The notes below the pieces were generated by a model. It was not told where the DNA came from. It searched no databases and saw only the letters and a list, made by a program, of their open reading frames with translations. A stretch of 64,000 bases of DNA from assembly GCF_009649955.1 (NCBI RefSeq), contig NZ_CP045875.1:2984001-3048000 (forward strand), read 5' to 3'. Below, piece after piece: positions 19,220 to 51,634 of this stretch; position 1 is the stretch's first letter; every line of letters starts with the position of its first letter. This stretch comes from Heliorestis convoluta. Lineage in GTDB: Bacteria; Bacillota; Desulfitobacteriia; Heliobacteriales; Heliobacteriaceae. The position numbers were made by a program, and so were the translations under genes.

Positions 19220-19295
19220 TGGCTCCTCGAGTAGGACTCGAACCTACAACCTACCGGTTAACAGCCGGTTGCTCTACCGATTGAGCTATCGAGGA
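19220..19295 (-). tRNA. tRNA-Asn (GTT)
   Basis: 76 nt with encoded CCA. Acceptor TCCTCGA/TCGAGGA, anticodon GTT in CTGTTAA, standard TTCGAGT T-loop. It lies about 35 nt downstream of the 16S fragment, in the place where the end of a normal rRNA operon would be. Confidence 0.96.
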
Positions 19296-19330
19296 ATATT
19301 GTTTTAGCTCAATGATTCTTTTCAGAGTAT

Positions 19331-19550
19331 ATTGCTCCTTTGGTTGTCCCATGATGCCATAGAACAACTTTATGCGGTATTAGCTCTCCTTTCGGAAAGT
19401 TATCCCCCTCTTATAGGTAGGTTATCCACGCGTTACTCACCCGTTCGCCACTAAGTCTTGGAATAGCAAGCTATCCCTTAACTCCGTTCGACTTGCATGT
19501 GTTAGGCATGCCGCCAGCGTTCGTCCTGAGCCAGGATCAAACTCTCCAAA
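19331..19550 (-). rRNA. 16S rRNA, 5' fragment only (~220 nt)
   Basis: The minus strand reads GAGAGTTTGATCCTGGCTC, then the GACGAACGCTGGCGGC and CATGCAAGTCGAACGG regions, GGCGAACGGGTGAGTAACGC and the AATACCGCATAAAG region into the V2 helix. Homology ends around 19331, after AAAGGAGCAAT. The remaining ~1,300 nt of 16S, all of 23S and 5S are absent before tRNA-Asn. It keeps a normal promoter and leader. Either a real deletion leaving a transcribed 16S stub, or an assembly collapse of an rrn operon. Confidence 0.9.
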
Positions 19551-19749
19551 AAATTATGGGTGAGCCTGATAAAGCTCTTAATTGACTTTTTTTGATAACT
19601 TTTGTATTTATAATGAAGGTTTCGAAAAACCATCACCGAATCTGCAAAAGCTCTCAGAATTGATTGGTTTGTCGTAAGCCCGAAAGCTTCGACATTTTCG
19701 CACGCTTGACTTGTTTACAACTGTTTGATTTTCAAGGACCAGAATTGAA
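19551..19749 (-). other. rRNA operon leader
   Basis: Transcribed leader between the rrn promoter and the 16S fragment. It includes CCTTGAAAATCAAACAG, which resembles Firmicute rrn leader sequences. A 45-bp block (19696-19740) and a ~33-bp block (about 19556-19588) recur in inverted orientation at 49093-49137 and 50957-50989. Confidence 0.75.
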
Positions 19750-20328: not shown

Positions 20329-20520
20329 ATTGCATTTACAATAGGCCAAAACGCAGTCACAACCAGCAAAATGTATCTGGGTCAGGTGTTATGACTTCCT
20401 GGAGAGAGGACTTCAGACCTCAGCCATCGGCAGCTTGCTGCCGCTCATGGCGTGGGATGAGTCCGTTCGGAAGGAAATCATAACGCCTGACCCCACCACA
20501 GGGTAGCTATTTTCGTGTTA
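20329..20520 (+). repeat. Extended repeat unit, copy A
   Basis: The 115-nt structured core (20379-20493) lies inside a longer unit shared with copy B. The left flank shares CAGTCACAACCAGCAAAATG and a CAATAGG block; the right flank shares CACCACA and CTATTTTC. Because similarity extends past the hairpin on both sides, the repeating unit is about 190 bp, not just the stem-loop. Confidence 0.75.
20379..20493 (+). ncRNA. 115-nt structured element, copy A
   Basis: Arms GGGTCAGGTGTTATGACTTC.. and the complementary ..GGAAATCATAACGCCTGACC pair over 21 positions with one mismatch and one G-T. Inside, GGACT/AGTCC, GCCAT/ATGGC and CGGCAGC-TT-GCTGCCG stems enclose the conserved strands GACCTC and GTGGGA. 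Same length as copies at 37596 and 51348, with compensatory changes in several stems. Plus orientation, about 500 nt upstream of the AOR gene. The ncRNA type is an inference; it could be a DNA-level mobile hairpin. Confidence 0.6.
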
Positions 20521-20629
20521 ACCCCTCATGCCCGTCCGGACACAACCAGATATAAAAATTCTATTTTGTGTTAAGTAACTGAAAACTCTGAACACCTATT
20601 CATTTTTCGACCCAAACATGATAAAATCA

Positions 20630-37559: not shown

Positions 37560-37759
37560 GATAACATGAAAATAGTCAATTGGTACTTTGTGGTGGGGTC
37601 AGGCCTTATTCATTCCTTCCGAACGGACTCATCCCACGCCATAGGCGGCAGCAAGCTGCCGATGGCTGAGGTCTGAAGTCCTCTCTCCAGGAATGAATAA
37701 GGCCTGACCCAGGTACATTTTGCTGGTTGTGACTGGGTTATGACCTATTGCAAATACAG
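37560..37759 (-). repeat. Extended repeat unit, copy B
   Basis: Longer unit around the 115-nt element; the flanks match copy A on both sides (CAGTCACAACCAGCAAAATG on the left, CACCACA and CTATTTTC on the right, read on the minus strand). Confidence 0.75.
37596..37710 (-). ncRNA. 115-nt structured element, copy B
   Basis: Perfect 21-bp complementary arms (GGGTCAGGCCTTATTCATTC.. and ..GAATGAATAAGGCCTGACCC). On the minus strand the core is nearly identical to copy A, while arm positions 9-18 differ from A on both strands in a compensating way. Same orientation as secA and 78 nt upstream of its start, in the hpf-secA interval. Confidence 0.6.
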
Positions 37760-42657: not shown

Positions 42658-43041
42658 ATGGAAGATTTGGTGCATGATATGTTGGAGCAGAAAGTCTGGG
42701 TTGTGGCCGGTTCTTTTCGCAATGAGGAAAAGTGGGCTTATAAGATTTATCGTAAGTTGAAGGAAAAAGGTTATACTGTCTATGCTTTGAACAATGCTGT
42801 GAAAGAAGTGGATGGCGCTCCTACCTATGGCACGTTGAAAGATTTGCCTCAGACTCCGCAAGTGATCAATTTGGTTACGCCACCGGAGGTTAGTCGTAAG
42901 CTTGTCGGTGAGAGTGCGCAAATGGGAATAGCTTATGTGTGGTTTCAACCAGGGGCTGAAAGTGATGAGGCTGTTGAAGCGGCTGAAAAAGAGGGTATGA
43001 AGGTGCTGCATAATGCTTGCGTTTATGCGCTTCATAGTTGA
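42658..43041 (+). CDS. CoA-binding domain protein (YccU-like)
   Basis: 127 aa Rossmann fold of the CoA_binding_2 family: WVVAGSFRNEEKWAYKIYRKLKEKGYTVYALN, VINLVTPPEVSRKLV, GIAYVWFQPGAESDEAVEAAEKEGMKVLHNACV. Role unknown; related domains occur in succinyl-CoA synthetase. ATG after AAAGGAG. Its last ~32 codons are duplicated at 44479-44572. Confidence 0.85.
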   Translation: MEDLVHDMLEQKVWVVAGSFRNEEKWAYKIYRKLKEKGYTVYALNNAVKEVDGAPTYGTLKDLPQTPQVINLVTPPEVSRKLVGESAQMGIAYVWFQPGAESDEAVEAAEKEGMKVLHNACVYALHS

Positions 43042-43072
43042 TAGGGTTGCTTAGTATTGATGGTAAGATGGT

Positions 43073-43117
43073 AAAAAATCCCGTGATCAGGTTTATGCTG
43101 ATTCACGGGATTTTTTT
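43073..43117 (+). terminator. Bidirectional terminator
   Basis: AAAAAATCCCGTGA-TCAG .. CTGA-TTCACGGGATTTTTTT between convergent genes; a second copy is at 44597-44640 as part of a tandem duplication. Confidence 0.92.
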
Positions 43118-43166
43118 GCATATTGAGTTGCCGGGGTCTTCCGGTAAGTGCCTTTTGTTTTTGTTG

Positions 43167-43570
43167 TTATGATTTGTTCAAATCTTCTTTTAGCTTTTGC
43201 ACTTCTACTATGTCTAATCCCATGATCTGAGCTATGAGGTTGACTTCGAGGCCGGCTTTTAGGGCGGCTATGGTTTTTTCTCGCAAGGTTTCCTGACGGC
43301 CTTCTGCCTTTCCCTCAGCTTTCCCTTCTGCCTTCCCCTCAACTCTTCCTTCTTCTTTCGCTCCGGCTAATGCGGATATTTCATCGCGTACTGCTTTTTC
43401 TCTTAGTTCGTAGATTCTTCGTTCGATGTTGCTTTTCATGAAGGCTTGTTCTATGGTAACTGCTTTTTTTATGGCTGGGTTCTCCATGGCTATCTCCTCC
43501 AATTCTTCTCCTTCGAGATTGTTTAGGTACATGAGCCATGCTTCTAGTTTGTTTTGGGGCTTTCGTTTTA
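43167..43570 (-). pseudogene. Rpn-family nuclease/transposase, C-terminal remnant 1
   Basis: Encodes the last ~130 residues of the protein complete at 44690-45637 (KPQNKLEAWLMYLNNLEGEE, NPAIKKAVTIEQAFMKS), including the EGKAEGKAEGKAEG repeat tail and the C-terminal LNLIAQIMGLDIVEVQKLKEDL helix. The N-terminal catalytic PD-(D/E)XK part is missing; upstream sequence passes directly into the stop of the MNT gene. A start at 43532 exists, but there is no nuclease domain. Confidence 0.85.
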
Positions 43571-43576
43571 GGTTTT

Positions 43577-43903
43577 TTAATCTTTGTAAATGATTTTTCC
43601 TTTTAGAATTATTTCATCAAATAGAAAGTCTCCACGACTCGCTTTCTGGTACTGCTCCATAGAATAGGGCCTTGGAGAAATGTCCAGATCAATGTCTCTG
43701 GTTACTTTTTTTAGTATGAGAGATTCTTTGAGCCGATCTTGACCGAGATCGGGAGAAACAATAGCTAAATCAATGTCACTGTCTTCGTTATCGAGTCCAG
43801 CAGCCACAGAACCGTAAAGAATGGCTATCTTGACTCGGATGTTTTTATTTTTTAAGGCTTCTATGTATTTGTTCATAGTTATTTCAATATGTTTTTTAAC
43901 CAT
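43577..43903 (-). CDS. MNT-type nucleotidyltransferase (antitoxin)
   Basis: 108 aa minimal nucleotidyltransferase: GSVAAGLDNEDSDIDLAIV holds the GS and DxD catalytic motifs, with a third Asp in DIDLDIS. MNT proteins paired with HEPN proteins form toxin-antitoxin systems in which the NTase modifies (AMPylates) the HEPN RNase. Overlaps the upstream HEPN gene by 25 nt. Its last 13 codons are identical in style to a remnant at 46198-46232. Confidence 0.88.
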   Translation of the reverse strand: MVKKHIEITMNKYIEALKNKNIRVKIAILYGSVAAGLDNEDSDIDLAIVSPDLGQDRLKESLILKKVTRDIDLDISPRPYSMEQYQKASRGDFLFDEIILKGKIIYKD

Positions 43904-44268
43904 TCTAACATTTCCCCTGATTTTTGAAGAGTATCTTTCGTAACCTCTTTGGTACAGCTCTTAGATAAGCTCTCCCTGTCTTCGGCATACCTAGATTCAA
44001 TATAGTAAAAAGATAGTGTGTCCAAAAAATCCTGTTGGCTCTCATTTAACTGCGATAGTAGATTTACTTCTTTCGCTAAAACTATAAGATCGTGTTTGCG
44101 GGGCGGTGTCTCATTAAACTTCTCATAGTATACAGCCTTGAGAGCTTTTTCAATCGCTTGTTGGCAGAAGAAAAGGCAGTACAGATTCTTTTTCTTTTCA
44201 TAAAGATGACCAGCTACCTCATAATCTTCCTGAGCGAGCTCGACCCAGTTTCTCGTTTTTAGCTTCAC
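43879..44268 (-). CDS. HEPN-domain protein (toxin)
   Basis: 129 aa helical HEPN protein: NWVELAQEDYEVAGHLYEKKKNLYCLFFCQQAIEKALKAVYYEKF, PRKHDLIVLAKEV, then a conserved Tyr-rich helix (SFYYIESRYAED). The RNase Rx4-6H motif is not obvious, so nuclease activity is uncertain. Forms an operon with the overlapping MNT gene. Probably acquired as a module inside an Rpn gene. Confidence 0.85.
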   Translation of the reverse strand: MKLKTRNWVELAQEDYEVAGHLYEKKKNLYCLFFCQQAIEKALKAVYYEKFNETPPRKHDLIVLAKEVNLLSQLNESQQDFLDTLSFYYIESRYAEDRESLSKSCTKEVTKDTLQKSGEMLEWLKNILK

Positions 44269-44478
44269 AATCGGACACCTACCTTAAAAAAGTTGTAGGA
44301 TCACATCAACCCAACTTGACCCGCTTGTCTATAGTACGTTATAAAACATACCAATACGTTGATTCCATATTGTAGAAAGCAATAATTGTGTCTGATTGAT
44401 CGTGGAGTCCTAGTCTAATCTTACTTTTTCGTAACTATTGTAGCATATCGAAGCTTTTATTTCCATATAATTGAAATA
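44269..44478. other. Upstream region of HEPN-MNT, duplicated block
   Basis: No gene. Around 44430-44478 it contains a block (GCATATCGAAGC, TTTCCATATAATTGAAAT) that recurs at about 47507-47545, upstream of the second module. Likely promoter DNA of the original Rpn gene carried along by duplication. Confidence 0.6.
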
Positions 44479-44572
44479 ACCAGGGACTGAAAGTGTTGAG
44501 GGTGTTGAAGCGGCTGAAAAAGAGGGTATGAAGGTGCTGCATAATGCTTGCGTTTATGCGCTTCATAGTTGA
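44479..44572 (+). pseudogene. Duplicated 3' end of CoA-binding protein gene
   Basis: Encodes PG.ESVEGVEAAEKEG and the identical GMKVLHNACVYALHS end plus stop of the 42658 gene, without its first ~95 codons. Left edge of a tandem duplication that also contains the terminator and the 3' end of the Rpn gene. Confidence 0.88.
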
Positions 44573-44596
44573 TAGGGTTGCTTAGTATTGATGGTG

Positions 44597-44640
44597 AAAA
44601 ATCCCGTGATCAGGTTTATGCTGATTCACGGGATTTTTTT
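44597..44640. terminator. Duplicated bidirectional terminator
   Basis: Same stem-loop as 43073-43117 (TCCCGTGA .. TCACGGGA with A/T flanks). Confidence 0.9.
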
Positions 44641-44689
44641 GCATATTGGGTTGCCGGGGTCTTCCGGTAAGTGCCTTTTGTTTTTGTTG

Positions 44690-45637
44690 TTATGATTTGT
44701 TCAAATCTTCTTTTAGTTTTTGTACTTCTACTATGTCTAATCCCATGATCTGAGATACGAGATTGACTTCGAGGCCGGCTTTTAGGGCGGCTATGGTTTT
44801 TTCTCGCAAGGTTTCCTGACGGCCTTCTGCCTTCCCCTCAGCTCTTCCTTCTACCTTTCCCTCAGCTTTCCCTTCTGCCTTTCCCTCAGCTTTCCCTTCT
44901 TCTTTCGCTCCGGCTAATGCGGATATTTCGTCGCGGACTGCTTTTTCTCTTAGTTCGTAGATTCTTCGTTCGATGTTGCTTTTCATGAAGGCTTGTTCTA
45001 TGGTAACTGCTTTTTTTATGGCTGGGTTCTCCATGGCTATTTCCTCCAATTCTTCTCCTTCGAGATTGTTTAGGTACATAAGCCATGCTTCTAAGGTGTT
45101 TTGTGGTTTTTCTTTTAGTTTTTTGGCTTTTTCTAGTTCGAGAAAGTGGATTTCTAGGTCGTCGTTCAGTACTTCTCCTGTTTCGTCTTCTCGGATGCGG
45201 AATCTGCGGTGATAGCGGCTTTCGTCGGTAAACCAGTTGAAGGCTATTATGTTTATGGTTACTGTTTTGCGTAGTTCTTTAAATGGTTGACCACGGGTGA
45301 GTTGACCATGATAAAGGCCGGACCAGTAGTAGAGGGTTCGTTTGTCTATGTTGTACTGATTGCCTACTTGTACTTCTATGTTGATCAGGGTTCCCTTTTC
45401 TGTCTTTGCTAGTACATCGAGTCTAGCTCCTCGATCTAGTAAGTAGGTTGGTTCGATTTCTCTGTCTAGTAGTTCTATGCTTTTTATTTCTTGCTCTTGT
45501 GGAAGTTTTAGGACTGCGTTGAGAAAGTTGATGAGTACTTCTTTGCCTTCTTCGGAGCCGAATATTCTTTTGAAGGCGTAGTCGTTGATCCGGTTGATTG
45601 CTTTGATTTCTTTTAGGTTGCTTCTTTGTTTTGTCAT
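44690..45637 (-). CDS. Rpn-family recombination-promoting nuclease/putative transposase
   Basis: 315 aa, apparently intact. N-terminus INDYAFKRIFGSEEGKEVLINFLNAVL and catalytic core LLDRGARLDVLAKTEKGTLINIEVQVGNQYNIDKRTLYYWSGLY, with the PD-(D/E)XK D and ExQ residues. The C-terminal region has a charged linker with seven EGKA-like repeats and an amphipathic helical tail. Related Rpn proteins are DNA nucleases that promote recombination. GTG/ATG region at 45637; the only complete copy among four traces of this gene within 4.5 kb. Confidence 0.88.
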   Translation of the reverse strand: MTKQRSNLKEIKAINRINDYAFKRIFGSEEGKEVLINFLNAVLKLPQEQEIKSIELLDREIEPTYLLDRGARLDVLAKTEKGTLINIEVQVGNQYNIDKRTLYYWSGLYHGQLTRGQPFKELRKTVTINIIAFNWFTDESRYHRRFRIREDETGEVLNDDLEIHFLELEKAKKLKEKPQNTLEAWLMYLNNLEGEELEEIAMENPAIKKAVTIEQAFMKSNIERRIYELREKAVRDEISALAGAKEEGKAEGKAEGKAEGKVEGRAEGKAEGRQETLREKTIAALKAGLEVNLVSQIMGLDIVEVQKLKEDLNKS

Positions 45638-45730
45638 TTTGCCACCTGCTTTAATCCTCTTCCTATTGTAGGAGGGGACTATTTATTCTTTGACAATGTT
45701 TCAGGCTTCCCCAACTTGATCGCAGACTTC

Positions 45731-46196
45731 TTATTGAAGGATAAGCTCCCTTATCTCTTCCAGTGTATTTATTGAATAAATCTTTTTCGATATTCGGTTC
45801 AGTTCGTTTACATCTTCTATGTTTCTCACCTTTTGTTGCAGTTCAAGTGATGACTTTCCGAACCTTGCTTCCAAGTAATTGCATAGTGAGTCTTGTATTC
45901 CTTCTGCCTTACCTTCCGCTTTACCTTCCGCTTTACCTTCTGCTTTGCCTTCCGCCTTTCCTTTCGCCTCACCTTCTGCTCTAGCTCCAGCTAAGGCGGA
46001 AACCTCGTCGCGGACTGCCTTTTCTCTTAGCTCGTAGATTCTGCGTTCGATCTTGCTTTTCATGAAGGCTTGTTCTATGGTAACTGCTTTTTTTATGGCT
46101 GGGTTCTCCATGGCTATTTCCTCCAATTCTTCTTCTAGGTTATTTAGGTACATCAGCCATGCTTCTAGTTTGTTTTGGGGCTTTCGTTTTAGGTTT
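45731..46196 (-). pseudogene. Rpn-family C-terminal remnant 2
   Basis: Same truncation point as remnant 1 (begins at KRKPQNKLEAWLMYL) but with one codon lost in LNNLEEELEE and a different last ~50 residues (DSLCNYLEARFGKSSLELQQKVRNIEDVNELNRI, a DUF4351-like end). Six EGKA repeats. Catalytic half is at 47146-47475, so this and that fragment are probably the two ends of one Rpn gene interrupted by the nucleotidyltransferase module. Confidence 0.8.
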
Positions 46197-46197
46197 T

Positions 46198-46232
46198 TTA
46201 ATCTTTGTAAATGATTTTTCCTTTTTGAATTA
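46198..46232 (-). pseudogene. MNT nucleotidyltransferase 3' remnant
   Basis: Encodes IIQKGKIIYKD plus stop, the same tail as the MNT protein at 43577 (IILKGKIIYKD). Everything upstream has been replaced by an IS end. Confidence 0.75.
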
Positions 46233-46277
46233 TTTTGAATAAAAGCTGTCTTTTGCTACTCGTGCAAGGCTACTGGT
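46233..46277 (-). mobile_element. Remnant of an IS right end
   Basis: About 45 bp (GAATAAAAG.., ..CTACTCGTGCAAGGCTACTGG) matching the right terminus of the intact IS at 49170-50819. No transposase remains. Confidence 0.8.
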
Positions 46278-46333
46278 TACGACCCCTTGGCTGGGTAAGG
46301 CTACCTTGGCAGGCTTGCCCAGCTCGAGCAATT

Positions 46334-46732
46334 TTAACTTGTGTATTTTTGTTCAATTTTCTGAAGTGACTGTTGCAGTATGCTTGGCATTCGCTGGGCA
46401 CTTTCAAATACTTGTTCGGCAGTGATTCTGTTATAGGTATGTGATGTACGATTGCGATCTTCTAAGAATTCGAACCAGACGTCTATGTCTTCGATAATTT
46501 TTAGTTCGTACATGGTTCGTAGAGCCTGTCGTGGTGATGCTACATCGATGCCTTCAATTTTGGCTACTTTGCGAAAGAGTTTCCAAGCAAGTTCGAAAGT
46601 GTATTCAAAACGTTGTATGGTTGCATCACGTACTATTTCTGTGTAGGGCATGGGTAAAACTTCTTCCAGCGTAGCTAAAGCTCGCTTTAATACTTCTATG
46701 TGAATAGTGAGTTCTTCTCTTTTTGTTTCCAT
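46334..46732 (-). CDS. HI0074-type nucleotidyltransferase partner (HEPN toxin)
   Basis: 132 aa helical protein: RFEYTFELAWKLFRKVAKIEGI, PRQALRTMYELKIIEDIDVWFEFLEDRNRTSHTYN, with the R-x4-H HEPN RNase motif in DRNRTSHTY. This subfamily pairs with MNT nucleotidyltransferases. Overlaps the upstream nucleotidyltransferase by 37 nt. Confidence 0.88.
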   Translation of the reverse strand: METKREELTIHIEVLKRALATLEEVLPMPYTEIVRDATIQRFEYTFELAWKLFRKVAKIEGIDVASPRQALRTMYELKIIEDIDVWFEFLEDRNRTSHTYNRITAEQVFESAQRMPSILQQSLQKIEQKYTS

Positions 46733-47124
46733 ACTATCACCTTATTCTTGTGGATGGCGATTTCAATAAATTTTTGTGTTACTTTTTGAAAATCTACTAG
46801 CTCCACTTTCGCAGGAATGGGCAATTCTTCTAACTCTTCTTTTAACGTTACTATTAGATTAGGAGCAATAGGGTTATCGGAATAATAGCCAATGTCATAA
46901 TCAGAATTGGCACGAGATTCTCCTGCTGCTCGTGAGCCAAATAAAAAAAGATCGATGTCGTGCCCTTGAAAAGCTGCGAGCACTTTTCGTCGGATTCCTT
47001 CTTGTTCCTGCCAAACTCTAGAGCCATCTTCGTCCATAATTCGATAGCCCTTCGCTTTAAATGGTCGCCATTCTTTTCTTCGTTCGATTGGGTTTTTTCC
47101 TTTGAGTACGATATATTTGTCCAT
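46696..47124 (-). CDS. MNT-type nucleotidyltransferase, second module
   Basis: 142 aa. Catalytic motif FLFGSRAAGESRANSDYDIGYY with GS and DxD, and a third acidic site in KVELVDFQ. ATG 47124 follows GGAGGTATCTCC. Antitoxin partner of the HI0074-like gene. It is not closely similar to the MNT at 43577, so the two modules are different families inserted in the same type of host gene. Confidence 0.87.
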   Translation of the reverse strand: MDKYIVLKGKNPIERRKEWRPFKAKGYRIMDEDGSRVWQEQEGIRRKVLAAFQGHDIDLFLFGSRAAGESRANSDYDIGYYSDNPIAPNLIVTLKEELEELPIPAKVELVDFQKVTQKFIEIAIHKNKVIVWKQKEKNSLFT

Positions 47125-47145
47125 GGAGATACCTCCGAGTGTCTT

Positions 47146-47475
47146 AGGTCATCGTTTAGTAGTTGCTCTGTTTCGTCTTCTCGAATATGTAATCTGTGGT
47201 GATAGCGATTTTCATCGGAAAACCAGTTAAATCCTATTACATTCACCAGGTACACGGTTTTTCGCAGCTTGCTAAAAGGTTGGCCACGGGTTAGTTGACC
47301 ATAGTAAAGGCCAGCCCAGTAGTACAGGGTTCGCTTGTCTATGTTGTATTGGTTGGCGACTTGGACTTCTATGTTCATTAGTGTTCCAGTCTCCGTCTTG
47401 GCTAACACATCGAGCCTGGCTCCTCGATCAAATAAAAAGCTAGGGTCGATTTCTCTGTCTAGTACTTGTAGTTTC
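47146..47475 (-). pseudogene. Rpn-family catalytic-region remnant
   Basis: Encodes LDREIDPSFLFDRGARLDVLAKTETGTLMNIEVQ and the QYNIDKRTLYYWAGLYYGQLTRGQPF segment to QLLNDDL, about 110 residues of the Rpn core. The N-terminal ~45 residues are missing, and the frame runs into the MNT ribosome site after NDDL. Confidence 0.85.
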
Positions 47476-47736
47476 TGTGTCGAAGGTTTACTACGTTTTT
47501 GTGACTATTATAGCATATCGAAGCATTTGTTTCCATATAATTGAAATTGATTTCTTTGGTGTTCCCATAGTCTGTAGTCTAAAAGAGTATTTTTGTTAGT
47601 CTATTTCCAGATTCTTGAAATCTGTTTTTTACTTATTGCTTGATTGTTTGATTTATTTGAGAAAAACTATTCTTTATTTTAATATTTTATGCTAAGAGCG
47701 TTTATTTCTAAATAAAATAAGTTTTTAGAAAATTCA
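47476..47736. other. AT-rich junction region
   Basis: No gene recognised. Holds the repeated block around 47507-47545 (also at 44430-44478), then very AT-rich DNA up to the truncated tRNA-Ser. Confidence 0.5.
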
Positions 47737-47803
47737 GGCGCACGATTGGAATCGTGTAGGCGGCAAAACCGTCTCGAGGGTTCGAATCCCTCTTTCTCCG
47801 CCA
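47737..47803 (+). pseudogene. tRNA-Ser (GGA), 5'-truncated
   Basis: Contains the anticodon arm with GGA (CGATTGGAATCG), the long variable arm, T-arm, acceptor 3' strand TTTCTCC and CCA. The 5' acceptor strand and D-arm are missing and replaced by unrelated AT-rich DNA, so it cannot fold into a tRNA. Confidence 0.88.
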
Positions 47804-47812
47804 TAGAAGAAT

Positions 47813-47889
47813 CGGGGTGTAGCTCAGTTTGGTGGAGCGCCTGCCTTGGGAGCAGGAGGCCGCACGTTCAAATCGTGTCACCCCGACCA
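47813..47889 (+). tRNA. tRNA-Pro (TGG)
   Basis: 77 nt with CCA; acceptor CGGGGTG/CACCCCG, anticodon TGG in the CTTGGGA loop. Confidence 0.95.
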
Positions 47890-47903
47890 TTTCTCTTAAA
47901 AAT

Positions 47904-47977
47904 GCGGGTGTAGCTTAATGGTAAAGCTCTAGCCTTCCAAGCTAGCTACGTGGGTTCGATTCCCATCACCCGCTCCA
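47904..47977 (+). tRNA. tRNA-Gly (TCC)
   Basis: 74 nt with CCA; acceptor GCGGGTG/CACCCGC, anticodon TCC. Confidence 0.95.
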
Positions 47978-47990
47978 TTATTTTGCTATG

Positions 47991-48066
47991 GTGGCTGTGG
48001 CGAAGTGGTTAACGCACCGGATTGTGGCTCCGGCACTCGTGGGTTCAAGTCCCATCAGCCACCCCA
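47991..48066 (+). tRNA. tRNA-His (GTG)
   Basis: 76 nt with CCA; acceptor GTGGCTG/CAGCCAC, anticodon GTG; a G at 47990 can serve as the G-1 identity base opposite C73. Confidence 0.95.
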
Positions 48067-48084
48067 TCTAAAGGCCTTTATCAA

Positions 48085-48159
<75 letters not shown>

Positions 48160-48209
48160 CTTATAATCCAATACACTGCTGCTGCCACTCATACAAGTTA
48201 CCTATACGC

Positions 48210-48285
48210 GATCCATTAGCTCAGTTGGTAGAGCACCTGACTTTTAATCAGGGTGTCGCTGGTTCGAGTCCAGCATGGATCACCA
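48210..48285 (+). tRNA. tRNA-Lys (TTT)
   Basis: 76 nt with CCA; acceptor GATCCAT/ATGGATC, anticodon TTT. Confidence 0.95.
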
Positions 48286-48291
48286 TTTTAT

Positions 48292-48367
48292 GGCCCGTTG
48301 GTCAAGTGGTCTAAGACACCGCCCTTTCACGGCGGTAACAGGGGTTCGAATCCCCTACGGGTCACCA
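48292..48367 (+). tRNA. tRNA-Glu (TTC)
   Basis: 76 nt with CCA; acceptor GGCCCGT/ACGGGTC (one G-T), anticodon TTC. Confidence 0.95.
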
Positions 48368-48375
48368 ACATTCTT

Positions 48376-48451
48376 GGGCGATTAGCTCAGCTGGGAGAGC
48401 ACCTGCCTTACAAGCAGGGGGTCGGCAGTTCGATCCTGTCATCGCCCACCA
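48376..48451 (+). tRNA. tRNA-Val (TAC)
   Basis: 76 nt with CCA; acceptor GGGCGAT/ATCGCCC, anticodon TAC. Confidence 0.95.
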
Positions 48452-48468
48452 TAAAAAACACAAAAAAT

Positions 48469-48544
<76 letters not shown>

Positions 48545-48554
48545 TTTTGAAAGT

Positions 48555-48585
48555 AAAGACTTTCGTAAGACGAAGGTCTTTTTTC
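48555..48585 (+). terminator. Terminator of tRNA cluster
   Basis: AAGACTTTCG-TAAGA-CGAAGGTCTT followed by a T run, 10 nt after tRNA-Thr. Confidence 0.85.
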
Positions 48586-49092
48586 TTCTTTAAACAAAAA
48601 AGAAAAAGCTTTGTGAATTCATTGCCTCTTCTCGAAAGACCTGCGCAACCTGCATTTGAAGAAAAAATTCTTGATTCATATGCTCATGTCATGTCGACCT
48701 TGCTCTTTCTGAGAATAAGCTTGCATTATGTTAGAATTTACGAACAAAATCTTCGAGATGACAGAGAAAGTTGCAACAGAAATCATGGTTCCAAGATTGG
48801 ACATGATGTGCTTGTAAAACAATCTTTCTTTCAATGAAAACTTGAAAAATCATTCAATCTGAAAAATATGGTCGTTATCCTGTTTGTGAAGTGACAAAAT
48901 TGCCTTGCTAAGGCGAGATTTGGACTTTGAATCTCTTCTTTCGCTTCATTGTTACTCTCATTGGTATATCCGTAGTAGAGGCACTAAAGTTGAATTTTTA
49001 TAGACACGCGATTTACCAAAAAGAACCAGTAGACAAAACGATGCAAAACATGATACTATGTATTTCCGCCCAACAAGAGGGCAAAACAAACC
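48586..49092 (+). other. Region before second rRNA leader, no gene
   Basis: No convincing coding sequence. A TAGACA..TACTAT pair (about 49030-49058) could be a weak rrn promoter for the leader that follows. Confidence 0.4.
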
Positions 49093-49137
49093 GGTCCTTG
49101 AAAATCAAACAGTTGTAAACAAGTCAAGCGTGCGAAA
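49093..49137 (+). repeat. rRNA leader block (inverted copy of 19696-19740)
   Basis: Perfect 45-bp match, in opposite orientation, to the leader of the 19.3-kb 16S fragment (CCTTGAAAATCAAACAG and following). Confidence 0.9.
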
Positions 49138-49169
49138 CAAGAAGTTGTGCGAATTGTTCGGGGGACGTA

Positions 49170-50819
49170 CCCAATAGCCTTGCATCAAAGTAAAAAAATA
49201 CAAAAAAATCTATTAGCAACCTGTGATTTTTTCGTTGGATACAAGTCGACCGAAGGAAGATATCCCTTCGGTCTTTTTTTCTCTAACGATAGGTCTGATT
49301 CAATACCACGAACTAAAGAAGAAAATGAGAATACTTTACTTTTAACCCTGTAAAATTTTTCTTTATTAATAAAAAGCCAATAACATATCAAAGCCCCTGG
49401 TTCCCATTTTTTGCTTTTATTTGTTTTGTATATTGGCTAAATATTTTTGCTTTTTATCTTGCCCTTTTATTTTCGCAACTGTACCTGGAAATTTAACTAG
49501 CTTCTTCTTTTTATCGGGGACTTTTTGTCTACCTTTTGATGTTTTTTGGGGTTTGCTATATAACTCTTCAATAAACTCTCCCCAAGTTTTATAGAAATAA
49601 ACACGTAGCAAGGTTAGTACTTGCTGATGTGTCTTATTCGTTTTCATTTTTAATTTTACAATTAGAGAAAGTCCATATGCGATAAGGGCAATAAACATAT
49701 GATTCCATATTCCCTGAGGTTCTGTGCTTCTTATTATGGACAATTTCAAATTCTGTTTTATCCATTTGAAAAATGTTTCTACCATCCAGCGATTTTTATA
49801 TATGTCCATAATTTCTTCTTCTGATAAATCCCAACGTGTTGTTACAATACGATAGATGCTTCCTTTTTCATTGATAAACTCTACAAGGCGAAATGCTTCG
49901 TCTGATGTACTAAATTTTATTTTGGCACTTTTTGATACATGCGTACAAGTCGGTTTATATTCTTCTAAGACTTTAAATGTATACTGGGTTTTGATTCGAA
50001 CTACAAAAGATATGTCATCTTTTTGCCACTTCGCCATTCTTTTTGTACATCCATAGCCCCGATCCATTACGTATGTGACGTCAGCTTTTTCTATCAGTTC
50101 GTCTGAACCTTCAAAGTCGCTTACATTGCCTGTAGAAGGCAGTATTTTATCCGGATAGGCTGTGTCTGGCGATGCTACAATGAGTCGAGTATGCATTTTT
50201 ACTACATTCCATCCCTTTGTAACATAGGCCCAGTCGCATATATTTTCCGGTAATTTTAGATGGGTGGCATCAAGAATGCTTAGTATACCAATTCTTTTTG
50301 ATAATCCTTTTGAATGTTGTGTCAGCGTTCGAAGCATTTCCACGACCATTGTATATAAATCTCGAAGTAATTCCGTAGGTAATGCGTTAATTCGTCGACT
50401 TAATTGAGAGCCACTAAACGTTTCTATTCCAAATACTTTACAAAGTTCAGGATTGGCCTTCAATCTTTTCTCTATTTCTGTGTAAGATCGCCAGCCATCA
50501 AGCTGAGCAGCAACAAAAATTTTAATAAGTCCATCGGTATCAAGTTTATCATATTCATAATTTAACAAAGGGCATTTGTACTGTTCCATGGGAAGCATCG
50601 ATAAGCATTGACGTATGACCATTTTCTGTTTTATACTTATGTTATTCAATTTTTGGAACTCCTTTGTAGAAAGACTTGTTGGTGTTGGGAACCGAACAAG
50701 GTCTACTCTTTCTACAATAGGAGTTTTTTTCATTTTGTAAAGAGTTTTTTTGAAAACAGCTCTTTTTTACTTTATTTTGAATAAAAGTAATCTTTTCCTA
50801 CTCGTGCAAGGCTACTGGG
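49170..50819 (-). mobile_element. Intact IS4-family insertion sequence (~1,650 bp)
   Basis: Terminal inverted repeats CCCAATAGCCTTGCA (left, 49170) and CCCAGTAGCCTTGCA (right, complement ending at 50819), flanked by ACGTA on both sides (49165-49169 and 50820-50824), the apparent 5-bp target duplication. Contains one full transposase. A terminator-like hairpin GACCGAAGG/CCTTCGGTC with a T run (49248-49280) lies in its left part. Confidence 0.85.
49417..50733 (-). CDS. IS4-family transposase
   Basis: 438 aa DDE transposase. Catalytic Asp in SILDATHLKL, second in YVMDRGYGC, and the YREK signature in YKNRWMVETFFKWIKQNLKL (Y-x2-R-x3-E-x6-K), typical of IS4-family elements. The N-terminal helical region holds the DNA-binding domain; the C-terminus is lysine-rich. 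Intact frame with ATG 50733, so the element may still move. Confidence 0.92.
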   Translation of the reverse strand: MKKTPIVERVDLVRFPTPTSLSTKEFQKLNNISIKQKMVIRQCLSMLPMEQYKCPLLNYEYDKLDTDGLIKIFVAAQLDGWRSYTEIEKRLKANPELCKVFGIETFSGSQLSRRINALPTELLRDLYTMVVEMLRTLTQHSKGLSKRIGILSILDATHLKLPENICDWAYVTKGWNVVKMHTRLIVASPDTAYPDKILPSTGNVSDFEGSDELIEKADVTYVMDRGYGCTKRMAKWQKDDISFVVRIKTQYTFKVLEEYKPTCTHVSKSAKIKFSTSDEAFRLVEFINEKGSIYRIVTTRWDLSEEEIMDIYKNRWMVETFFKWIKQNLKLSIIRSTEPQGIWNHMFIALIAYGLSLIVKLKMKTNKTHQQVLTLLRVYFYKTWGEFIEELYSKPQKTSKGRQKVPDKKKKLVKFPGTVAKIKGQDKKQKYLANIQNK

Positions 50820-51057
50820 ACGTACCCCACAACAATTCAGAAACAATTCTGACAATTTGCTGAGCCGCTTAGGAGATAAACTGCTACAGTGCGAAAACCT
50901 TCGTTCTCGCTCTAAATTGGTTCTCTTAAAAAGGCAAAGCAAAATGTACTAAATTAAGTCAATTAAGAGCTTTATCAGGCTCACCCATATATAAGGAATG
51001 CAAAGGAAGTTCACTGCTGACGCCATTTATGGCGCAGCGAACTCCAAAACATCCTTT
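50820..51057 (+). other. Distal rRNA leader with inserted hairpin
   Basis: Contains the leader block AATTAAGAGCTTTATCAGGC (about 50957-50989), shared with the 19.5-kb leader. Between it and the 16S start there is an extra ~65 bp absent from the other copy, with a GTTC-CTGC..CGCCAT/ATGGCG..GCAG-GAAC type hairpin (51009-51042). Confidence 0.7.
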
Positions 51058-51242
51058 TTTGGAGAGTTTGATCCTGGCTCAGGACGAACGCTGGCGGCAT
51101 GCCTAACACATGCAAGTCGAACGGAGTTAAGGGATAGCTTGCTATTCCAAGACTTAGTGGCGAACGGGTGAGTAACGCGTGGATAACCTACCTATAAGAG
51201 GGGGATAACGTTTCCGAAAGGAGAGCTAATACCGCATAAAGT
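51058..51242 (+). rRNA. 16S rRNA, 5' fragment only (~185 nt)
   Basis: GAGAGTTTGATCCTGGCTC through the ATACCGCATAAAG region, nearly identical to the fragment at 19331-19550 but on the opposite strand; it breaks off about 35 nt earlier. Downstream sequence is the repeat unit C, not rRNA. Confidence 0.9.
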
Positions 51243-51255
51243 CTGAGTTTCGGCC

Positions 51256-51480
51256 TATTGCATTGCAAATACAATAGGTAGTTGCGTATATAGCAGAAAG
51301 TTTCGCCAAGCAAGGTCAAAGGGAGTAACAATCGGCAAAAACTCTCTGGGACTGGGCATCACGCTTTCCGGAGCGGGACTTGGGACCTCAGCTGTCGCCA
51401 GCTTGCTGGCGGTAACAGCGTGGGACCAGTCCAGAGCGGAGGAAAGCGTGATGACCAGTCCCCTGCAAGAAGTAACCCCA
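51256..51480 (+). repeat. Extended repeat unit, copy C
   Basis: Starts with CCTATTG-CATTGCAAATA-CAATAGG, whose last part (TTGCA..TACAATAGG) also begins copy A. It directly abuts the end of the 16S fragment and carries the 115-nt element at 51348-51462. Confidence 0.6.
51348..51462 (+). ncRNA. 115-nt structured element, copy C
   Basis: Arms GGGACTGGGCATCACGCTTT.. / ..AAAGCGTGATGACCAGTCCC pair at 21 of 22 positions but are unlike the arms of A and B. The core keeps GGACTT, GACCTCAGC, GCTTGCTG, GCGTGGGA and AGTCC, with paired substitutions (CGCCAGC/GCTGGCG; GCTGT/ACAGC; TGG/CCA). Plus orientation, 144 nt before the spoVAD start. Confidence 0.6.
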
Positions 51481-51511
51481 ACGTAATCGAACATGGCACA
51501 GGGTATTTCGT

Positions 51512-51634
51512 TTGGCAGCTATTTCAGCTATTTTCACCTATGGTTCTGCCCGACCGGCCATGGGGGGAGCAGGTATAGACGAGATTGTGGAGGATGGTGA
51601 CTCCGATGAAAGAAGAGATGAGTCCCCTCTGTGA
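51512..51634 (+). pseudogene. 3' remnant of an unidentified coding sequence
   Basis: A frame encoding LAAISAIFTYGSARPAMGGAG then IDEIVEDGDSDERRDESPL ends with TGA at 51632, overlapping the spoVAD start. The hydrophobic-then-acidic pattern looks like the C-terminus of a membrane protein; its 5' part is lost at the junction with the repeat. I could not match it to SpoVAC. Confidence 0.4.

What the first reader, a model, noticed from the sequence alone, without database searches (positions are those of the whole stretch)
20329..20520. The 115-nt element is embedded in a ~190-bp unit with conserved flanks
Copies A and B share CAGTCACAACCAGCAAAATG immediately left of the stem and CACCACA then CTATTTTC to the right. 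Copies A and C share TTGCA..TACAATAGG further left, and an inverted CCTATTG/CAATAGG pair brackets the left end in C. A conserved flank outside a variable-arm hairpin suggests the mobile unit (or promoter plus RNA) is larger than the hairpin.
Basis: seen in the sequence. Interest (0 to 1): 0.6.

Follow-up and report, generated by a model that had tools for sequence, protein, structure and literature searches.

The report
Mobile hairpin repeats near transcription terminators
The flagged stretch is a broken copy of a larger repeated DNA element, present dozens of times in this bacterium, built from folded hairpins whose relatives in other bacteria insert at the stop signals of genes and copy those signals as they do so.

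Summary
The genome is Heliorestis convoluta HH (same length, 3,218,981 bp). The "190-bp unit" at 20329-20520 is a left-truncated copy of a larger composite, about 460 bp when whole: short palindrome S, left flank, hairpin H1, spacer, hairpin H2, right end. H1 and the reverse complement of H2 share a core. Core patterns occur 152 and 145 times genome-wide; 59 H1-H2 pairs were found. All 81 clusters examined are intergenic. Seven of nine comparable sites lack the hairpin in H. acidaminivorans.

The hairpin core keeps its pairing through compensatory changes. It occurs in H. acidaminivorans, in the 23S rRNA trailer of Heliobacterium chlorum and H. mobile, and in multiple copies in other Bacillota. 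In three of those genomes, 14 of 18 copies are flanked by direct repeats of a site-specific palindrome, mostly recognisable terminators. That is the "whole stem-loop duplication" drawn but not observed for IS1272-like elements (PMC5678879).

Best reading: a non-autonomous mobile hairpin family targeting terminators. No mobilising enzyme was found; in H. convoluta no target duplication was found. Novelty: new variant of a known kind.

The parts
20339..20378 (+). copy A: 3' third of spacer M (positions 86-125), including CAATAGGCC and CAGTCACAACCAGCAAAATG; left truncation point of this copy
20379..20493 (+). copy A: hairpin H2, 115 nt; core conserved, outer arms variable but complementary
20494..20515 (+). 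copy A: right end RE, CACCACAGGGTAGCTATTTTCG
20508..20559 (+). copy A: short palindromic unit S (starts TATTTTCGTGTTAACC), overlapping RE
37711..37752 (-). copy B: 3' part of spacer M; left truncation at another point than copy A
37596..37710 (-). copy B: hairpin H2 with the covarying CCTTATTCA/TGAATAAGG arm variant; the equivalent H. acidaminivorans interval has no hairpin
37566..37595 (-). copy B: right end CACCACA...CTATTTTCAT
51348..51463 (-). copy C: hairpin H1, 116 nt
51243..51347 (-). copy C: left part of spacer M (positions 6-103), joined directly to a 16S rRNA fragment (51050-51242)
51464..51567 (-). copy C: partial left flank LE and partial unit S

Best explanation
The flagged stretch is a 5'-truncated copy of a non-autonomous, non-coding mobile element of Heliorestis convoluta. 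The complete element (about 460 bp: S - LE - H1 - M - H2 - RE) carries two ~115-nt hairpins of one family in inverted orientation. The hairpin core is an old, structure-conserved nucleic-acid module found in several Bacillota lineages. SHOWN: copy number, composite architecture, compensatory pairing, intergenic location, lineage-specific presence, frequent T-tract or terminator on the left side in H. convoluta, and direct repeats of site-specific palindromes around relatives in three other genomes. INFERRED: a transposase supplied in trans recognises the hairpin as folded DNA and joins it at the foot of a target stem-loop (typically an intrinsic terminator). Gap repair then copies the whole stem-loop, so the length of the duplication follows the size of the target hairpin. 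In H. convoluta the composite seems to use another joint: it sits 3' of a T-rich ...TTTTC..RYTA motif that is also its own right end, with no duplication seen.
For: Copies: 70 flank matches, 152 and 145 core matches with controls of 0, 2 and 4; 59 H1-H2 pairs. Structure: 95.4% of cells paired, 9 of 23 pairs changed on both sides, 0/500 shuffles; for 43 matches from other genomes, 92.8% and 13 of 23, 0/500. H2 arms covary between copies. Location: 0 of 81 clusters inside a coding-scoring ORF. Movement: 7 of 9 sites with both flanking genes matched in a 400-kb stretch of H. acidaminivorans have no core match. Terminators: 16 of 48 left ends follow a terminator-like hairpin against 3 of 41 right ends; base-shuffle mean 0.35. 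Relatives: in G190, G448 and G114, 14 of 18 copies have flanking direct repeats (score >=14) against 0 of 36 mismatched controls drawn over all eight genomes; most lie 31-32 nt left and 25 nt right of the core; 11 of 15 such repeats (score >=13) fold with >=5 pairs on their own.
Against: No transposase was tied to the element: the only Y1 transposase in the genome sits in an IS605 with different ends, and a 9.6-kb stretch around one relative held no recognisable parent. H. convoluta composites show no locus-matched duplication (own 12 of 59 against 31 of 227 in controls), and neither do 12 H. acidaminivorans copies. The strong terminator-duplication evidence is from other genomes, and 23 of the 41 relatives examined (G155, G162, G196, G223, G410) did not show it; two scores >=14 among those are neighbouring-element repeats. 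Two of nine comparable sites hold a hairpin in both species, so loss or old insertions also play a part. The core's conservation and its place in the 23S trailer of Heliobacterium also fit a functional RNA.
Confidence: 0.58

Rival explanations
1. A functional structured RNA: the core binds a protein or is processed as RNA (it sits in the 23S rRNA trailer of Heliobacterium), and the repeats are transcribed 3'-UTR or processing elements kept by selection rather than by movement alone.
For: In H. chlorum and H. mobile 8 of 10 core matches lie about 26-36 nt after the 23S 3' end; one more adjoins a 23S fragment, one does not. Compensatory changes. The strand that is 23S-sense in Heliobacterium folds better as RNA in 7 of 7 typed H. 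acidaminivorans copies and in 35 of 41 others. A-C against G-T mismatches lean weakly the same way, 14 to 7.
Against: 23S trailers of H. convoluta and of the G004 genome lack the hairpin, so it is dispensable there. Inverted pairing in the composite makes both strands alike. No promoter excess. No bias of the hairpin relative to terminator direction (8, 5 and 2 ties of 15).
Confidence: 0.2
2. A REPIN/BIME-like element mobilised by a REP-associated tyrosine transposase (RAYT) through single-stranded DNA.
For: Inverted hairpin doublets with a spacer, intergenic, high copy, tandem arrays, singlets as remnants, as described for REPINs (PMC3116915, abstract and passages).
Against: No RAYT: one Y1_Tnp match only, beside TnpB with unrelated ends. 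The hairpins are ~115 nt, far longer than the 20-40 bp given for REPs (PMC3733652, abstract start).
Confidence: 0.1
3. IS200/IS605-like peel-and-paste of the H. convoluta composite, with TTTTC..RYTA as target and right-end cleavage motif and GATGAAAAT as pairing guide.
For: Same T-rich RYTA motif at the left flank and the right end; no duplication; S arrays share the motif head to tail; a subterminal hairpin near the left end.
Against: The genome's single TnpA belongs to an IS605 with other ends. R/Y bases at the two ends vary independently. The guide idea is recalled mechanism, not tested.
Confidence: 0.12

Closest known systems
IS1272 / IS1182-family elements (PMC5678879: outline, passages and Discussion part 1 read; PMC4923244: abstract and passages read)
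   Same: Target folded inverted repeats, several of them transcription terminators, with little primary sequence preference. The 2017 paper draws a pathway (b) in which joining at the 5' feet of a cruciform duplicates the whole stem-loop, which is the footprint seen around G190/G448/G114 copies.
   Different: IS1272 replaces the stem-loop and makes no duplication; it encodes a transposase and has 16-bp terminal repeats. Our element is non-coding, and whether an IS1182-type enzyme moves it was not tested.
REPINs / BIMEs (PMC3116915: abstract and passages; PMC2817692: start of abstract in search listing)
   Same: Inverted hairpin doublet as a unit, intergenic, tandem clusters, compensatory changes, singlet remnants.
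   Different: Hairpins ~115 nt with a conserved bulged core; ~125-nt spacer; no RAYT; terminator association.
Prokaryotic MITEs and pneumococcal BOX elements (PMC10969869, PMC3049150: starts of abstracts in search listings only)
   Same: Short non-coding mosaic intergenic repeats.
   Different: The H. convoluta composite lacks clear terminal inverted repeats and target duplications; its core is shared across Bacillota families.
23S rRNA trailer and processing-stem inserts
   Same: Core sits between 23S and the CTGTGTAGTTTTC strand in Heliobacterium.
   Different: Elsewhere the same core is a dispersed intergenic repeat.

Membership tests
MITE | short, non-coding, high copy, intergenic | tested here: met
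   no ORF >=100 aa covers 20329-20520
MITE | terminal inverted repeats | tested here: inconclusive
   H. convoluta composite: ends ACC.../...RYTA are not inverted repeats. G190/G448 relatives: CAG....T.GACAAA motif found at one or both ends in 16 of 17 copies
MITE | target site duplication | tested here: inconclusive
   not seen in H. convoluta (12 of 59 against control 31 of 227) or H. acidaminivorans (0 of 12); seen in 14 of 18 copies of G190, G448, G114
REPIN | inverted hairpin doublet with spacer | tested here: met
   59 H1-H2 pairs in inverted relation
REPIN | RAYT in the genome, near the repeats | tested here: not met
   one Y1_Tnp (PF01797) match, an IS605 TnpA beside TnpB, no element parts nearby
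IS1182/IS1272-derived element | insertion at palindromes/terminators | tested here: met
   H. convoluta, 16 of 48 left ends; relatives
IS1182/IS1272-derived element | stem-loop replaced, no duplication | tested here: not met
   stem-loop duplicated in 14 of 18 copies of three genomes; terminator left intact beside H. convoluta copies
IS1182/IS1272-derived element | cognate transposase with matching ends | not tested
IS200/IS605-derived element | ends match a resident TnpA element | tested here: not met
   no significant match of S, LE, H1, M, H2 or RE in the IS605 locus L085 (best E 0.16)
Rfam RNA family | match above gathering score over the hairpin | tested here: not met

The most novel reading that the evidence does not exclude
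A family of mobile hairpins, spread over several Bacillota lineages, in which donor and target are both recognised as folded DNA: insertion copies an entire terminator stem-loop, so the target duplication has no fixed length but the length of the target hairpin. The same core has settled as a transcribed insert in the 23S rRNA trailer of Heliobacterium, and in Heliorestis has become an inverted-pair composite dispersed dozens of times.
Probability: 0.35. Interest if true: 0.78.

Novelty: new variant of a known kind. Interest (0 to 1): 0.62.

Why it matters
Structure-defined target duplication has been drawn as a possible pathway for stem-loop-seeking transposons (PMC5678879) but not shown for IS1272 itself. 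The G190/G448-type copies look like natural examples with many independent insertions, which makes the pathway testable. The element also shows how a folded module can shift between selfish repeat and rRNA-operon insert, and it gives a ready covariance model for a family with no match in Rfam 15 at the thresholds used here.

Tried and rejected
Simple two-copy duplication: rejected. Known Rfam RNA: none over the hairpin. 5S rRNA in disguise (the Heliobacterium copies sit where 5S often lies): the 5S model does not hit those loci, and true 5S copies were found elsewhere. Resident IS605 as source: ends differ. Solitary S units flanking a transposase (2706271 and 2708825): the genes between and beside them are not transposases by reading their translations. 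Promoter: no excess. Arms taken from the target site: not supported. Arms of 11 hairpins compared (8 of 13 H. acidaminivorans copies, H1, H2, H. chlorum) are little more alike than random (6.0 against 5.3 of 14), yet complementary within each copy (10-14 of 14); no target-derived origin could be shown. Hairpin orientation relative to terminator direction: no bias. Viral contigs: 0 matches. The exact-pattern scan of genome contigs found only H. acidaminivorans, H. chlorum and H. mobile; the covariance model later found wider relatives, so that pattern was too strict. One search used stricter filters and scored only 11 candidates per genome: its copy numbers are lower bounds and absences are weak. 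A possible second element sharing the CAG..GACAAA end beside L253 gave only a sub-threshold group II intron match and was not pursued.

Rows dropped before counts. One search kept the best of overlapping part hits. One search dropped S/RE/LE hits with E>1e-4 and clusters without H1 or H2 (81 of the 83 clusters remain); 12 of 81 had no decided gene on one side. At least one further copy (L217) was missing from those lists, because print only the first 100 places. One search used 48 of 72 H1 and 51 of 77 H2 (equal length only). One search's orientation count left out G162 and G223 and copies scoring under 13. One search used 12 of 13 H. acidaminivorans copies.

Full report
WHAT WAS CHECKED. The flank identity between copies A and B is real and far beyond chance. 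The genome is Heliorestis convoluta HH: its length, 3,218,981 bp, is that given in PMC7143216 (passages read), and the window is bases 2,984,001-3,048,000.

ANATOMY. A search of the own genome gave 79 matches to the 192-bp query with only 40 of 100 candidates scored. The flank 20-mer gave 70 places. The two halves of the hairpin core gave 152 and 145 (reversed-pattern controls 2 and 4). I fetched the 83 clusters listed and annotated parts by local BLAST (S 78, H2 77, M 73, H1 72, LE 58, RE 53). The common order is S-LE-H1-M-H2-RE, often followed by S again; 59 H1-H2 pairs were counted. H1 and the reverse complement of H2 share GGACTNNTCCCACGC...GCTGAGGTCNNAAGTCC, while their outer arms differ. 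Copies A and B of the window are H2 plus right end with the left part lost at different points; copy C is H1 plus left spacer fused to a 16S fragment. So the '190-bp unit' is a truncation of a ~460-bp composite.

STRUCTURE. On 16 sequences from three genomes, 95.4% of cells pair, 9 of 23 pairs have changes on both sides, and no shuffle of 500 reaches this. On 43 matches from eight other genomes, 92.8% and 13 of 23 (that alignment was fitted to the model, so it leans towards it). In H2 the arms vary as matched pairs between copies, for example GCGTTATGA/TCATAACGC against CCTTATTCA/TGAATAAGG. In H. acidaminivorans the arms of different copies are hardly alike but complementary within each copy. 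The strand that is 23S-sense in Heliobacterium folds better in 35 of 41 relatives and 7 of 7 typed H. acidaminivorans copies.

DISTRIBUTION. BLAST found the element's hairpin in 3 of 9 family genomes including the own. The covariance model R1 found it in 3 of 8 other family genomes: G007 with 13 copies, G001 and G002 with 5 each, in 4 of 82 class genomes, and in 9 of 398 phylum genomes, eight of them outside the class and six of these with 8-11 matches where at most 11 candidates were scored. In the two Heliobacterium species 8 of 10 matches lie just after the 23S rRNA 3' end, inside what reads as the strand pair of the 23S leader and trailer (the pairing is recalled knowledge); trailers of the other species are short or carry different palindromes.

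MOVEMENT. None of 81 clusters lies in a coding-scoring ORF; neighbours are tandem in 35, convergent in 20, divergent in 14, undecided in 12 (heuristic). In a 400-kb stretch of H. acidaminivorans, 9 H. convoluta loci have both flanking genes side by side. Seven have no core match there and two do, with other arms. The intergenic DNA is too diverged to read exact junctions. Several H. convoluta copies share one flank with a distant copy (for example 883097 and 2727779, 923771 and 1774893), as expected from recombination between copies.

ENDS AND TARGETS IN H. CONVOLUTA. Left ends read ...TTTT(C)..RYTA|ACC, right ends ...TATTTTCGTRYTA; the two RYTA copies do not match within most copies, so no duplication is evident. 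Among 48 non-tandem left ends, 16 directly follow a terminator-like hairpin with T-run, against 3 of 41 right ends; base shuffles gave 0.35 on average. Own left-right similarity is no clear excess over that between copies beyond the recurring S unit (12 of 59 against 31 of 227).

TARGETS IN RELATIVES. Around 41 core matches of eight other genomes, 16 have a flanking direct repeat scoring >=14, against 0 of 36 left-right pairs taken from different copies of the same genome. In G190 (9 of 11), G448 (4 of 6) and G114 (1 of 1) these are site-specific palindromes such as AAAGGCCGGGGAACCGGCCTTT, mostly 31-32 nt left and 25 nt right of the core; the detected stretches are about 16-28 bp long and follow the size of the hairpin. 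The other two of the 16 (one each in G162, G223) are repeats of neighbouring element ends. Eleven of 15 repeats (score >=13) fold with five or more pairs on their own. G155, G196 and G410 show none.

READING. The simplest account is a non-autonomous mobile hairpin family. In some hosts it joins DNA at the feet of terminator stem-loops and so duplicates them; this is pathway b in the model figure of Wan et al. 2017 (PMC5678879, Discussion part 1 read), who observed only stem-loop replacement. PMC4923244 (passages read) reports terminator hairpins as IS1272 targets and quotes that some IS1182-family members target palindromes. I did not test for such a transposase because the lead appeared after the last genome search. 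That IS1182 elements may have long or palindromic direct repeats is otherwise from memory. Within the library held, searches returned no listed paper that, from title and start of abstract, describes terminator-duplicating MITEs, and none on repeats of heliobacteria; this is weak evidence of absence.

LIMITS. Gene context and terminator calls are heuristics of my own scripts. The phylum search was shallow per genome. The duplication evidence comes from relatives and is not shown for the window's own element.

Noticed in passing
window 19244-19499 (-), 51050-51242, 19696-19740 and 49093-49137: Two 5' remnants of 16S rRNA (98% alike, inverted) and two exact copies of a 45-nt stretch that resembles a 16S leader bracket about 30 kb; copy C of the repeat is fused to one remnant.
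   Followed up: partly
G000:C1 (H. convoluta whole genome): Eleven matches to the 23S 3' end but only two 5S matches, both near 781.6-782.1 kb and upstream of a 23S rather than after it; the paper's table lists 9 rRNAs.
   Followed up: partly
L146, L152 (G006) and L147, L161, L165, L169 (G007): 23S trailers of other heliobacteria carry different palindromic inserts at about the same place.
   Followed up: no
L253 / L265 (G448:C35): Beside one copy a second sequence starts with a similar CAG..GTAGACAAA end directly after the terminator repeat, with a sub-threshold group II intron match.
   Followed up: partly
flanks of many H. convoluta copies, e.g. L006, L009, L020: Another short repeat, resembling GCCAAACGAAACGTCCCCGTG(A/C)CAC, often follows the S unit.
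   Followed up: no
L131 (G007:C2): A hairpin copy lies about 240 nt from an OLE RNA (RF01071).
   Followed up: no
window 42947-50818: A cluster of diverged direct repeats of about 56-292 nt.
   Followed up: no
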